DNA from: JACRDV01 sp024860865 [NCBI: Methanobacteriota archaeon]
GTDB lineage: Archaea > JACRDV01
Direction of reading: 5' to 3'
DNA: 5,544 bases
NCBI GenBank assembly: GCA_024860865.1
Contig: JACRDV010000028.1
Location: forward strand, 1-5,544
The notes under the pieces are model-generated. The model did no database searches and was not told where the DNA came from. It worked only from the letters and a program-made list of their open reading frames with translations. A program made the position numbers and the translations under genes. Shown here piece after piece: positions 1 through 2,945 of the stretch. Each line of letters opens with the position of its first letter. The stretch's first letter is position 1.

Positions 1-73
1 AATGCGCGGTTCTAAACATGACCCCGACTGGCACAAATATCAAATTACAGATGAAGGATTCAAAATTATTTAG
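1..73 (+). CDS. C-terminal tail of an upstream gene (partial)
   Basis: An open frame enters from the left edge and ends at TAG 71-73, giving about 23 readable residues that finish DPDWHKYQITDEGFKII. The mix of charged and aromatic residues looks like coding sequence, and a T-rich tract follows the stop directly, as expected at an archaeal gene end. The ending has the flavour of a winged-helix or small globular domain tail, but too little is visible to name a family. A Met codon at 2-4 is internal or unrelated; the true start should lie outside the window. It could also be chance open frame, hence the modest confidence. Confidence 0.4.
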   Translation, partial: MRGSKHDPDWHKYQITDEGFKII

Positions 74-76
74 CTA

Positions 77-90
77 AATTTTGTTTATTG
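77..90 (+). terminator. T-rich terminator after the partial upstream gene
   Basis: A T-rich run (ATTTTGTTTATTG) begins four bases after the TAG at 71-73. Archaeal RNA polymerase terminates at such oligo-T tracts without needing a hairpin. The assignment rests on position and composition only. Confidence 0.35.
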
Positions 91-157
91 TAGGTAACTC
101 CCAATATCTTTGTGGAAATCAAGACAGTCCCCATTCACCAAAGTTATTTTAAGATTA

Positions 158-193
158 GAAGCTCAGTTCCAGTGGGATCCGAATCCGAGCTTC
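158..193. other. Hairpin with 7-bp perfect stem
   Basis: GAAGCTC (158-164) pairs with GAGCTTC (187-193). Inside it, GGAT (175-178) pairs with ATCC (183-186) around the tetraloop CCGA, leaving a 10-base unpaired stretch on the 5' side. It is more GC-rich than its surroundings. It could be a structured RNA element or a protein-binding palindrome; nothing nearby identifies its role. Confidence 0.4.
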
Positions 194-304
194 CATGTAA
201 AGGCCGATAGATTATTTGGTCCAGTGTTCTAAAAAATAGATAATGGTTTTTAGCAATTCAAACTCTAGTTTAGGCTTTTAGAAAAAAGTTTACTTTCTTT
301 TTAA

Positions 305-318
305 GGAACGAGAGTTCC
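305..318 (+). other. Small hairpin with GNRA tetraloop
   Basis: GGAAC (305-309) and GTTCC (314-318) pair around GAGA, a GNRA-class loop that is stable in RNA on the plus strand. A T-rich stretch precedes it and none follows directly, so it is not a clear terminator. Its function is unknown. Confidence 0.3.
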
Positions 319-459
319 ATCATTTTGAAAAAAGTTAATCAATCATCTTGACTTGACGCTACGTGATACAATTTGTACCATCTACTTAGAATCGAATTAG
401 GGGTTTCAAAAATACTAATGGAGTTCTATGGGCTCCGAAAATGATTTTAGTAAATTTCA

Positions 460-467
460 TTTATATG
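460..467 (+). promoter_or_regulatory. Candidate TATA box upstream of the lysyl-tRNA synthetase
   Basis: TTTATATG matches the archaeal TATA consensus better than anything closer to the gene. Transcription from it would start near 490 and give a leader of roughly 120 bases, much longer than the leaders inferred for other genes here. A poorer A-rich alternative lies at about 583-592. The assignment is tentative. Confidence 0.35.
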
Positions 468-603
468 ATTATACAATTGTTTTATTCACGTATTAGAAGG
501 TCTCAAAATTAATAGCACCTGAACTTCTATCAAAGATAATGCTGAAATAGGAATCAAGGAAAAAATTGCGCAAATCCAAGAAAAAATACAAATTAACATG
601 AAA

Positions 604-609
604 GGTGAT
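604..609 (+). promoter_or_regulatory. Shine-Dalgarno deciding a TTG start
   Basis: GGTGAT complements the 3' end of archaeal 16S rRNA (AUCACC). It leaves four bases before TTG 614, while it overlaps the alternative GTG at 605 and cannot serve it. This is the main reason for placing the synthetase start at TTG. Confidence 0.6.
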
Positions 610-613
610 ATGG

Positions 614-2203
614 TTGCATATTCCGATACATTGGGCAGATAAAATTGCAGAAGAATTAATCGCAACTGGTGCCCAAATTCATGTAATCGCTACAGGCATC
701 ACCCCTTCTGGCCCGGTACATATAGGGAATATGCGGGAAGTGTTAACCGCTGATGCTATTCTTCGAGCTTTAAAGGATAAAAGAGCTCACGCAAAACTTT
801 TGTACATAGCAGATGATTACGATCCGCTCCGCAGGAAATATCCATTTTTGCCTGAAAAATTTTCGCAGTATATTGGAAAACCACTAGTTGAGATTCCTTG
901 TCCAGAAAATTGCTGCCAAAATTATGCTCAACATTTTTTAAAACCATTCTTTGAAAGTTTAGATAGGCTTGGCATTCATCCAGAAATTCATTTATCTTCT
1001 GAAGCTTATCGAAGCGGAAAATATACAAAGTTGATTAAACTAGCTCTCACTCACAAGGACGAAATTAAAAAAATACTTGAAGAAAAAACTGGCCGAAAAA
1101 TGCCGGAAGATTGGGCTCCATTTAATGTCCGATGTGAGAAATGCGGTCGATTGAATACTACATTTGTAAAAAAGTTGGAAAATAATAAAGTTCACTATTT
1201 TTGCAAAGCATGCAATATTGAAGGCAAAGTCGATATTACTAAAGGCAATGGAAAACTACCTTGGCGAATTGACTGGCCAGCGCGCTGGGTTATTTTTGGC
1301 GTAACATGTGAACCGATGGGGAAGGATCATGCTGTTGCAGGGGGATCTTACGATACTGGCAAAGAAATCGTTAAGCTTTTCGGGGGGCAGGCTCCCTATC
1401 CAGTGCCATACGAGTGGATTTATTTCAAAGGAAAAGGCGCGATGAAAAGCTCAAAAGGCATAGCCTTTACTGGAGCCCAATGGTTGCAAGTTGCTCCGCC
1501 TGAAACCCTTCGATATTTAGTTATCAGGACAAAACCGCTGAAGCACATAGAATTTGACCCGCAGTTTGGTTTAATTGATATAATTGATCAGTACGACCGA
1601 ACTGAGAGGATCTATTTCGGAAAAGAAATTTCAGAGATTAGAGAAGAGGCCGAGGAGATGAAGCGCTCATATGAGCTCTCTCAAATTAAAGAAATACCAA
1701 GGCAATTGATACTTGCCTTGCCCTACAAATTTGCATCCATTTTAGTTCAAGTCCTGCTTGATAAGCAAACCCAACTCCAGAAAACTGTTGAAATATTAAG
1801 AAGAACCGGGCACTTAACAGAATCTCCAACCGATGTTGAGCTTAAAAAGACTAAAGAGCGATTAGAATTAGCTGAAAAATGGATAAATTGGTACGCACCT
1901 GAAGGTATGAAGTTTAAGCTTTTAGAAACTTTGCCAGAAAATATTATCTCACAGCTAACTGCAGAGCAAAAGCAATCGCTAAAAGAACTTAAACAATCGC
2001 TTCAAGCTAAAGATTGGACGCCAGTTGATTTACATAATGAATTTTATCGAATTGCTACAGAAGCAAAAATTAAACCACAGCAATTGTTTGAGGCAGCATA
2101 CCAGGTGCTTACAGGGAAGAAATTTGGGCCAAGGCTTGGATGGTTTTTGCTTTCTTTAGATAAACCTTGGATACTAAAAAGGTTGGAGGAAGCAGCTAGC
2201 TAA
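614..2203 (+). CDS. lysS: Lysyl-tRNA synthetase, class I (archaeal type, LysK)
   Basis: Charges tRNA-Lys with lysine using ATP in the cytoplasm. This is the archaeal class I enzyme, unrelated in fold to the bacterial/eukaryotic class II form. From TTG 614 it is 529 residues, the usual length. The HIGH motif is HIGN (36-39) in GITPSGPVHIGNMRE. A CxxC...CxxC zinc knuckle is at C174/C177 and C197/C200. The family block WRIDWPARW...EPMGKDHAVAGGSYDTG follows, then the KMSKS equivalent MKSSKG (277-282). The rest is the helical anticodon-binding part. Start choice: GTG 605 is in frame and gives 532 residues, but GGTGAT (604-609), a strong match to the archaeal anti-Shine-Dalgarno, sits four bases before TTG 614, and homologues begin close to the HWAD segment. 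An in-frame TGA at 599-601 rules out longer forms. The stop overlaps that of the convergent gene. Often called lysK in archaea. Confidence 0.97.
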   Translation: MHIPIHWADKIAEELIATGAQIHVIATGITPSGPVHIGNMREVLTADAILRALKDKRAHAKLLYIADDYDPLRRKYPFLPEKFSQYIGKPLVEIPCPENCCQNYAQHFLKPFFESLDRLGIHPEIHLSSEAYRSGKYTKLIKLALTHKDEIKKILEEKTGRKMPEDWAPFNVRCEKCGRLNTTFVKKLENNKVHYFCKACNIEGKVDITKGNGKLPWRIDWPARWVIFGVTCEPMGKDHAVAGGSYDTGKEIVKLFGGQAPYPVPYEWIYFKGKGAMKSSKGIAFTGAQWLQVAPPETLRYLVIRTKPLKHIEFDPQFGLIDIIDQYDRTERIYFGKEISEIREEAEEMKRSYELSQIKEIPRQLILALPYKFASILVQVLLDKQTQLQKTVEILRRTGHLTESPTDVELKKTKERLELAEKWINWYAPEGMKFKLLETLPENIISQLTAEQKQSLKELKQSLQAKDWTPVDLHNEFYRIATEAKIKPQQLFEAAYQVLTGKKFGPRLGWFLLSLDKPWILKRLEEAAS

Positions 2204-2418
2204 AAAACTGTTGTTAAAGAAGCCAGCTGTTGAAGTTCATTTGCTGTGATTGGTTGATGGAATAATTCACTTACGAAGCGCTTAACATCAGAATGCGGGC
2301 CTTCAACGACTAACCAGACATTCTTGCCTTTAACACGTTTGCTCCATATTTGGCACTTACCAATGCTAACTGGTTGCCTCAAAATCGAGTCGTTAAAAAT
2401 TGGGAGTACTAATCGCAT
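2200..2418 (-). CDS. Hypothetical 72-residue basic protein
   Basis: I do not recognise the family. The protein reads as a compact alpha/beta domain: a hydrophobic strand at the N-terminus (MRLVLPIF), a strand pair through residues of about 19-42 (GKCQIWSKRV and GKNVWLVVEGP), an amphipathic helix (SDVKRFVSELF) and a final helix. It has one cysteine and no signal peptide or membrane segment. ATG 2418 is preferred to the in-frame TTG at 2430 because GAGGAT (2423-2428) gives proper Shine-Dalgarno spacing to the ATG and overlaps the TTG. A perfect TATA box (2451-2458) places the transcription start near 2428. These signals together argue for a real gene. It is convergent with the lysyl-tRNA synthetase and their stop codons overlap (2200-2202 and 2201-2203). 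Confidence 0.72.
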   Translation of the reverse strand: MRLVLPIFNDSILRQPVSIGKCQIWSKRVKGKNVWLVVEGPHSDVKRFVSELFHQPITANELQQLASLTTVF

Positions 2419-2450
2419 TTTAATCCTCAAGAATATTTGGAGTTAGAAAA

Positions 2451-2479: not shown

Positions 2480-2840
2480 TATCTAACGGACAGAAAAATC
2501 CTTTAAACGAATATCTAACGATAAAAACAAATGTCAGTTCAGATTTCTACTTTAAAATAATGTTTGATGTGTGTTTTAGAAAACTATCACTTGGATTTGA
2601 AAAAAATTCTCATTATATCTTGTGTTCTTCCCTATTTTTGTAGAGGAATTTAGGCATCAGTTGGAAATCCTTTAACTTCCTGAAACCTAACTCCTCATTT
2701 TCCGTTTGAGGATTCAACTTGTAGAGGTTCTTCACACTTAGAATCGGCAATTTTAGTCATTTGTTTCACTTTCAATGAATTGCATAAACCAGTCGCTAAG
2801 GCGATGCACAATCACAGCTTAAAAGAACAAAAAAATTAGC
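2480..2840. other. 360-base stretch without a clear gene
   Basis: No long open frame is present on either strand. Visible items are a direct repeat TATCTAACG (2480-2488 and 2512-2520), a 9-base repeat TTGTAGAGG (2638-2646 and 2719-2727), a 6-bp hairpin (TCCTCA 2692-2697 with TGAGGA 2707-2712), a 5-bp hairpin (GTCGC 2792-2796 with GCGAT 2801-2805, one G-U pair) and a 21-codon minus-strand frame (2695-2760). The 9-base repeats are about what chance gives at this length and composition. Confidence 0.5.
2821..2837 (-). terminator. Poly-T terminator of the guide RNA
   Basis: On the minus strand, TTTTTTTGTTCTTTT starts about six bases after the closing stem of the guide RNA. A long, nearly pure T-run in the template orientation needed for this strand is a good archaeal terminator and supports a short independent transcript. 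Confidence 0.6.
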
Positions 2841-2907
2841 GGCGCTCTGGATCAGGTGCGATCGTCATAAGTTTCCCTCTGTTTGGGACGGCTTCATCAT
2901 TGCGCCA
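2841..2907 (-). ncRNA. Candidate C/D box small guide RNA (2'-O-methylation guide)
   Basis: Such RNAs assemble with L7Ae, Nop5 and fibrillarin and direct 2'-O-methylation of rRNA or tRNA. Reading the minus strand: stem GGCGC (2906-2902), one A, C box ATGATGA (2900-2894), 12-base guide AGCCGTCCCAAA (2893-2882), D' box CAGA (2881-2878), a 9-base linker, C' box ATGACGA (2868-2862), 12-base guide TCGCACCTGATC (2861-2850), D box CAGA (2849-2846), stem GCGCC (2845-2841). Both guide intervals have the archaeal 12-base spacing. The closing stem, 3-base bulge AAU and tandem G-A pairs form a predicted kink-turn. A TATA-like element lies about 26 bases upstream and a T-run follows. Oddities: CAGA replaces CTGA in both D boxes, and a CTGA inside the second guide (2855-2852) is mispositioned for either stem or spacing. 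By the box-plus-five rule the predicted targets are UUUGGGACGGCU (fifth base G) and GAUCAGGUGCGA (fifth base A). I could not match either to an rRNA from memory. Confidence 0.72.
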
Positions 2908-2922: not shown

Positions 2923-2931
2923 GGACTCTTT

Positions 2932-2939
2932 TCATAAAC
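2932..2939 (-). promoter_or_regulatory. TATA-like element for the guide RNA
   Basis: The minus strand reads GTTTATGA with an A-rich stretch before it that could be a factor B recognition element. Its centre lies about 26-28 bases upstream of 2907-2910, exactly where the guide RNA's closing stem begins. Confidence 0.5.
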
Positions 2940-2945
2940 TTTTTC

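What the first reader, a model, noticed from the sequence alone, without database searches (positions are those of the whole stretch)
2841..2907. Unannotated C/D box guide RNA with complete architecture
The minus strand shows C box ATGATGA, C' box ATGACGA, two CAGA boxes, two guide intervals of exactly 12 bases, and a 5-bp closing stem with the 3-base bulge and tandem G-A pairs of a kink-turn. A TATA-like element sits at the right distance and a T-run follows. The joint spacing is unlikely by chance. Gene finders would leave this as intergenic or bury it under an N-terminal extension of the radical SAM gene.
Basis: partly seen in the sequence, partly recalled or inferred. Interest (0 to 1): 0.75.

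Follow-up and report, generated by a model that had tools for sequence, protein, structure and literature searches.

The report
Ordinary archaeal C/D box guide RNA
An uncultured archaeon carries a gene for a small RNA of a well-known kind that directs methyl groups onto ribosomal RNA; its anatomy is real and complete, one of its two guides probably addresses a well-known spot in the ribosome, and nothing about it is a new type of system.

Summary
Minus strand 2906-2841 holds a complete archaeal C/D box sRNA: GGCGC/GCGCC stem, C AUGAUGA, 12-nt guide, D' CAGA, spacer, C' AUGACGA, 12-nt guide, D CAGA. It scores 34.7; the best in 12 Markov shuffles of 489 kb from this genome is 31.7. Three other strong C/D candidates and a Nop5-fibrillarin pair are in the genome. 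CAGA departs from CUGA, but the second letter also varies in other archaeal candidates.

The MAG lacks 16S and 23S, so targets were sought in other archaea. The D' guide pairs nine bases of the 23S P-loop in 26 of 29; the fifth-base rule then names E. coli G2251, predicted as sRNA-guided in three archaea (PMC4644070). The statistics are mixed: 6 of 300 shuffled guides pass a test chosen after the fact, but 16% do as well by plain score. The D guide's target is open. Conservation could not be tested for want of close kin, and no RNA data exist. New member of a known kind.

The parts
2841..2906 (-). whole C/D box sRNA gene (66 nt, closing stem to closing stem)
   Evidence: scanner
2902..2906 (-). 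5' half of closing stem, GGCGC
   Evidence: pairs 5 of 5 with 2845-2841
2894..2900 (-). C box ATGATGA (consensus RUGAUGA)
2882..2893 (-). D' guide AGCCGTCCCAAA; probable target 23S P-loop, methyl site E. coli G2251
   Evidence: for; unremarkable
2878..2881 (-). D' box CAGA
2869..2877 (-). D'-C' spacer GGGAAACTT: possible 2-bp stem (G.U, G-C) capped by GAAA, then L1
   Evidence: pairing read by eye
2862..2868 (-). C' box ATGACGA
2850..2861 (-). D guide TCGCACCTGATC; target unresolved
2846..2849 (-). D box CAGA
2841..2845 (-). 3' half of closing stem, GCGCC
2931..2944 (-). candidate BRE/TATA-like element AAAAAGTTTATGAA
   Evidence: read by eye; about 28 nt before the stem; no statistic
2829..2835 (-). 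run of seven T, candidate archaeal terminator
   Evidence: read by eye; no statistic

Best explanation
This is a gene for an archaeal box C/D sRNA with two guides. Its C/D and C'/D' motifs bind L7Ae as a kink-turn and a short capped internal kink, and recruit Nop5 and fibrillarin. Each guide pairs with rRNA, and fibrillarin methylates the 2'-OH of the target nucleotide paired to the fifth guide base before box D or D'. Shown: the anatomy, its excess over chance, and genes for Nop5 and fibrillarin in the genome. Probable, about 0.6 on its own: the D' guide addresses the 23S P-loop (helix 80), giving Gm2251 in E. coli numbering. Open: the target of the D guide. Inferred from the known family: RNP assembly and catalysis. 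No transcript or methylation has been observed. The confidence given is for the class and mechanism, not for the targets; the first two rivals differ only in the targets.
For: All boxes, two 12-nt guides and a 5-bp closing stem in register. Score above every shuffle (34.7 against 31.7; 39.5 against 28.2). Three other strong C/D candidates in the roughly 30% of the genome read (C8:3118, C24:153-206, C42:11923). Nop5 and fibrillarin adjacent on C62. The D' guide pairs t3-t11 of the 23S P-loop without a break in 26 of 29 archaeal LSU. The rule nucleotide is G2251, numbering checked on an E. coli 23S. 19 of 29 meet 'nine pairs, at most one G.U, covering the rule position', against 6 of 300 shuffled guides and 10 of 300 random 12-mers that reach 15 sequences. 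PMC4644070 (section 7 read) predicts sRNA-guided methylation of G2251 in three archaea.
Against: D and D' are CAGA, not CUGA. By plain column score the D' site is not significant (p=0.159; 2 of 25 shuffles on LSU alone), and best scores per sequence are no better than those of shuffled guides (12 to 23 of 40 shuffles reach the observed value in the four guide-by-rRNA tests). The run test was chosen after seeing the site. The two guide bases next to D' pair with the P-loop in none of the 29 sequences. The D guide finds no conserved site (p=0.68; at most 1 sequence). The genome's own rRNA was not found. No homologue in 60 other archaeal genomes, none of them close. No RNA data.
Confidence: 0.88

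Rival explanations
1. It is a C/D box sRNA, but the D' guide addresses the anticodon arm of tRNA-Pro(UGG) rather than the P-loop: its complement UUUGGGACGGCU reads as loop UUUGGGA plus a 3' stem CGGCU.
For: 12 of 12 pairs with a hypothetical tRNA-Pro(UGG); the genome's tRNA-Pro(CGG), spliced by eye, has a comparable arm GCCGG-CUCGGGA-CCGGC.
Against: No tRNA-Pro(UGG) gene was found; this is weak, as the genome is 92% complete and its tRNAs are intron-rich. The rule nucleotide would be G36, for which I recall no precedent. A match to some tRNA loop is cheap by chance (not computed).
Confidence: 0.08
2. It is a C/D sRNA whose guides are orphans or have rRNA targets specific to this lineage; the P-loop match is chance.
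For: Plain scores are unremarkable (D' p=0.159, D p=0.68). Orphan guides are common: 28% in the Pyrobaculum data set (passage of PMC7994747).
Against: The D' register falls exactly on G2251, predicted in three archaea (PMC4644070), and about 2-3% of shuffled or random guides pass the run test.
Confidence: 0.3
3. It is a decayed or untranscribed C/D sRNA pseudogene.
For: CAGA in both D boxes; no Rfam match over threshold.
Against: Both guides exactly 12 nt, stem perfect, G.A bases intact, candidate promoter and T-run present. Of 8 other candidates above the null, 3 have a second letter other than U in D and 5 in D'.
Confidence: 0.06
4. Chance resemblance inside an intergenic region.
Against: No equal in 5.87 Mb of shuffled sequence or in 3 x 906 kb with the second D letter free.
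Confidence: 0.02

Closest known systems
Archaeal box C/D sRNA (double-guide, L7Ae-Nop5-fibrillarin RNP)
   Same: Size, order of boxes, two 12-nt guides, k-turn closing motif by sequence, intergenic gene, Nop5 and fibrillarin in the genome
   Different: CAGA instead of CUGA in both D boxes; 9-nt D'-C' spacer with a possible GAAA cap, against 3 nt in the three other candidates of this genome
Rfam sR1 (RF01152)
   Same: End-to-end alignment, mainly of the boxes, 16.1 bits
   Different: Far below the gathering score of 45
Guides for Gm2251 (sRNA-guided site predicted in three archaea, PMC4644070 section 7; counterparts yeast Gm2619, human Gm4196, Arabidopsis Gm2620, and RlmB in bacteria, table passages of PMC11542601)
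   Same: Predicted methyl site
   Different: No sequence comparison with those guides was made

Membership tests
archaeal box C/D sRNA | C box RUGAUGA and C' box close to it | tested here: met
   ATGATGA; ATGACGA, one base off; consensus from PMC7994747 passage
archaeal box C/D sRNA | D and D' boxes with GA in register for tandem G.A pairs with C and C' | tested here: met
   CAGA twice, by sequence only
archaeal box C/D sRNA | D and D' boxes fit the consensus CUGA | tested here: inconclusive
   Not met to the letter: three of four letters, second letter A. A consensus rather than an absolute rule: of 8 other candidates above the null (7 from other archaea, 1 from this genome) 3 have another second letter in D and 5 in D', none of them A (candidates, not proven RNAs)
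archaeal box C/D sRNA | Closing stem and k-turn geometry | tested here: met
   5 bp, 3-nt bulge, G.A bases, by sequence; folding and L7Ae binding not tested
archaeal box C/D sRNA | Guides of 10-12 nt between boxes | tested here: met
   12 and 12; range from PMC7994747 passage
archaeal box C/D sRNA | Guide complementary to a stable RNA of the organism | tested here: inconclusive
   Own 16S and 23S not found; D' fits archaeal P-loops with mixed statistics; D does not settle
archaeal box C/D sRNA | Core proteins in the genome | tested here: met
   Nop5 and fibrillarin on C62; L7Ae not searched
archaeal box C/D sRNA | Conservation in relatives | tested here: inconclusive
   60 other archaeal genomes, none nearer than the same domain: only matches of 16 and 21 nt in two of them, without C/D architecture there
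archaeal box C/D sRNA | Stable 60-70 nt transcript and 2'-O-methylation | not testable with these tools
   No RNA data held
Rfam sR1 | Score over gathering threshold | tested here: not met
   16.1 of 45 bits

The most novel reading that the evidence does not exclude
One sRNA in which both D boxes have moved to CAGA, so that the closing k-turn carries a Watson-Crick U-A at 3b-3n and the internal motif a C.A. This would be a C/D guide whose two L7Ae sites fold by different rules: the outer one mainly on protein, the inner one, GAAA-capped, on metal ions alone, giving an ordered assembly.
Probability: 0.08. Interest if true: 0.4.

Novelty: new member of a known kind. Interest (0 to 1): 0.22.

Why it matters
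It extends a known guide-RNA family to an archaeal genome with no close kin among the genomes searched, where a gene finder could miss it. If its D' guide makes Gm2251, that widely shared P-loop methyl mark is RNA-guided in this lineage too. It changes no general understanding.

Tried and rejected
Own rRNA: no 16S and no 23S over threshold in the MAG. A first scan of rRNAs from other archaea and the alignment took minus-strand loci in the wrong orientation; one search repeats the scan with strands corrected, and only it and later calls are used. One search scanned loci as fetched, without turning them; for the 22 tRNA matches this was redone, unspliced, with no run above 8 pairs.

A tRNA-Pro(UGG) target was pursued. 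One search (whole genome, 3 mismatches) found four tRNA-Pro-like 3' ends: tRNA-Pro(CGG), an intron-bearing tRNA-Pro(GGG), a lone 3' end, and one unassigned.

D-guide near-matches were weighed and left open: 16S helix 24 (E. coli 755, 11 of 12; archaeal L065 11 of 12 with one G.U) and 23S near E. coli 2365 (11 of 12; 10 of 12 at best in 29 archaea). Whole-genome search for the D target with one mismatch gave three other places, as many as its control (4 against 4 with the window itself).

Relatives: the radical SAM protein (query begun one codon before ATG 2946) found none in genome contigs; LysS found 8 loci, best 47% identity, Archaeoglobaceae. Neither allowed a test of the RNA's neighbourhood.

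Rfam also lists a plus-strand match to TtnuCD6 at 2901-2973 (21.1 of 50 bits, E 6.2): taken as chance. The bacterial promoter and terminator scan found nothing and does not cover archaeal signals.

Literature on CAGA boxes: of 12 papers that hold at least four of the terms archaeal, sRNA, box D, CAGA, RUGAUGA, the 10 listed hold no CAGA (listing only). This is no claim that such boxes are unpublished.

PMC11542601 equates H. marismortui Gm1950 with E. coli G2251; from recall the P-loop of that species is numbered about 2284-2285, so that equation was not used. PMC2584109 (passages) names a Haloferax sRNA for Gm1934 (Gm1950) in a supplementary title; not read.

Full report
What is there. The minus strand of the window reads, from 2906 to 2841: GGCGC-A-AUGAUGA-AGCCGUCCCAAA-CAGA-GGGAAACUU-AUGACGA-UCGCACCUGAUC-CAGA-GCGCC. 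This is the complete order of an archaeal C/D box sRNA: closing stem, C, guide, D', spacer, C', guide, D, closing stem. Both guides are exactly 12 nt. The closing stem has 5 Watson-Crick pairs, the bulge is A-A-U, and the bases of the tandem G.A pairs are in register.

Chance. A scanner with hand-set weights for the boxes (recalled consensus, not trained) was run on 489 kb of the window's own genome, some of it in overlapping stretches. The window locus scored 34.7; the highest score in 12 first-order Markov shuffles, 5.87 Mb on both strands, was 31.7. Four distinct loci exceed the shuffles: C8:3118, C24:153-206, C42:11923 and the window (the C8 locus is listed twice because two stretches overlap). 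Weaker scanner hits are not clearly in excess: 12 at 20 or more, duplicates included, against 7.2 per shuffle. With the second letter of D and D' left free and guides of 9-14 nt, the window scored 39.5 against a null maximum of 28.2 in three shuffles of 906 kb. A pattern search of the whole genome for C-D'-C' gave 9 matches and none for the reversed pattern; some of the 9 look like coding sequence by eye, which was not tested.

Setting. The genome is an archaeal MAG of 1.54 Mb in 160 contigs, 92.45% complete; the 60 other genomes searched as relatives are no closer than the same domain. The window carries a class I lysyl-tRNA synthetase, a radical SAM protein, an archaeal histone, a bifunctional-nuclease-domain protein and an eRF1 part. 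The RNA lies between the synthetase and the radical SAM gene, on the strand opposite to both. The longest radical SAM frame starts at TTG 2883 and overlaps the RNA; ATG 2946 is the likelier start. Nop5 and fibrillarin genes are adjacent on contig 62. L7Ae was not searched.

D boxes. Both are CAGA. In the three other candidates of this genome the D box is CUGA. In the free-letter scan (this genome, 400 kb from ten other archaeal genomes, and 60 rRNA-bearing loci), eight other candidates lie above the null: seven from other archaea and C8 from this genome. Their second letter differs from U in D in 3 of 8 and in D' in 5 of 8; none is A. C24 and C42 do not appear there, because of a 17-nt guide and a D' of AUGA. 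A few hits below the null maximum carry CAGA and are taken as noise. So the second letter varies in archaea; CAGA is unusual in this small sample but not outside the kind. In k-turn terms (my assignment) the closing motif has 3b-3n = U-A and the inner one C.A. The abstract and passages of PMC4382518 say a Watson-Crick pair there prevents folding in ions alone while 3b=C permits it, and that L7Ae still folded the worst such turn. PMC5689011 (parts 1 and 2 of 5 read) finds that -1n=G favours ion folding; the closing motif here has -1n=G, so the two rules point in opposite directions for it. Whether this matters is untested.

Targets. The genome holds no 16S or 23S over threshold, so guides were compared with rRNAs of other archaea: 30 LSU loci (all 30 genomes of 41 with a match) and 30 SSU loci (of 34 genomes with a match); the LSU alignment has 29, one partial sequence left out. 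Per sequence, the best scores of both guides are no better than those of shuffled guides (23, 17, 12 and 15 of 40 shuffles reach the observed mean for D'-LSU, D'-SSU, D-LSU, D-SSU, on the first ten sequences). By alignment column, the best site of the D' guide is the 23S P-loop (2 of 25 shuffled guides do as well on LSU; p=0.159 on both rRNAs). There t3-t11 (UGGGGCGGC) pair without a break, with one or two G.U, in 26 of 29 sequences; t1 and t2, next to D', pair in none. The rule nucleotide is t5; on an E. coli 23S the U of UGGGG is 2249, so t5 is G2251. By a run test chosen after the site was seen (nine pairs, at most one G.U, covering t5, in at least 15 sequences), the guide hits 19 of 29, while 6 of 300 shuffled guides and 10 of 300 random 12-mers pass. 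PMC4644070 (section 7 read) predicts sRNA-guided methylation of E. coli G2251 in three archaea and places it in the P site. PMC11542601 (passages with parts of two tables) lists its counterparts in yeast, human and Arabidopsis. I put the D' target at about 0.6. The D guide has no significant conserved site (p=0.68; at most 1 sequence). Near-matches in 16S helix 24 and 23S near 2365 need the organism's own rRNA.

Controls. The same column method applied to the guides of the three other candidates (seven entries) gave low values for the C24 D guide (p=0.005) and the C42 D' guide (p=0.02), and none for the other five entries, one of them a second trimming of the C24 D' guide. With nine entries tested in all, only the first stands clear of multiple testing, and the printed target strings for it were truncated. 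So a conserved target can sometimes be found this way, and lack of one is common.

Conservation. A search of 61 genomes, the window's own included, found the 78-nt region only in itself, apart from matches of 16 and 21 nt in two others that lie in sequence without C/D architecture. With no close kin this says little.

Conclusion. It is a new member of a known kind with a slightly unusual D box, one probable target of an already known type, and one open guide.

Noticed in passing
own genome, L074-L095 (tRNA matches) and L128:4360-4494: Of the 22 tRNA matches 19 are 84-119 bases long (two of them tRNA-Ser of normal length) and many look interrupted by introns, some apparently at unusual places; a tRNA-Pro(GGG) on C43 seems to carry two. 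Judged by eye.
   Followed up: partly
L152 (G000:C87:5547-5569, minus strand): The last 23 bases of tRNA-Pro seem to stand alone without the rest of a tRNA: an integration-site remnant or the 3' piece of a split tRNA.
   Followed up: no
window 1-604: About 600 bases upstream of lysS without any frame of 60 codons, ARAGORN tRNA or Rfam match over threshold.
   Followed up: no
window 2200-2430, minus strand: A 76-codon frame convergent with the end of lysS, no Pfam match.
   Followed up: partly
G000:C24:153-206 (L148, minus strand): Another C/D sRNA candidate (score 36.4). Its D guide gives the strongest target signal of all tested (23S, p=0.005); its D' guide resembles the complement of a conserved 23S stretch, but with p=0.20.
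   Followed up: partly
L030 (unnamed archaeon G030): Its P-loop reads CUGGGACGG, with A where the other 28 LSU sequences have G; it pairs with the window's D' guide as many positions as the others do.
   Followed up: no
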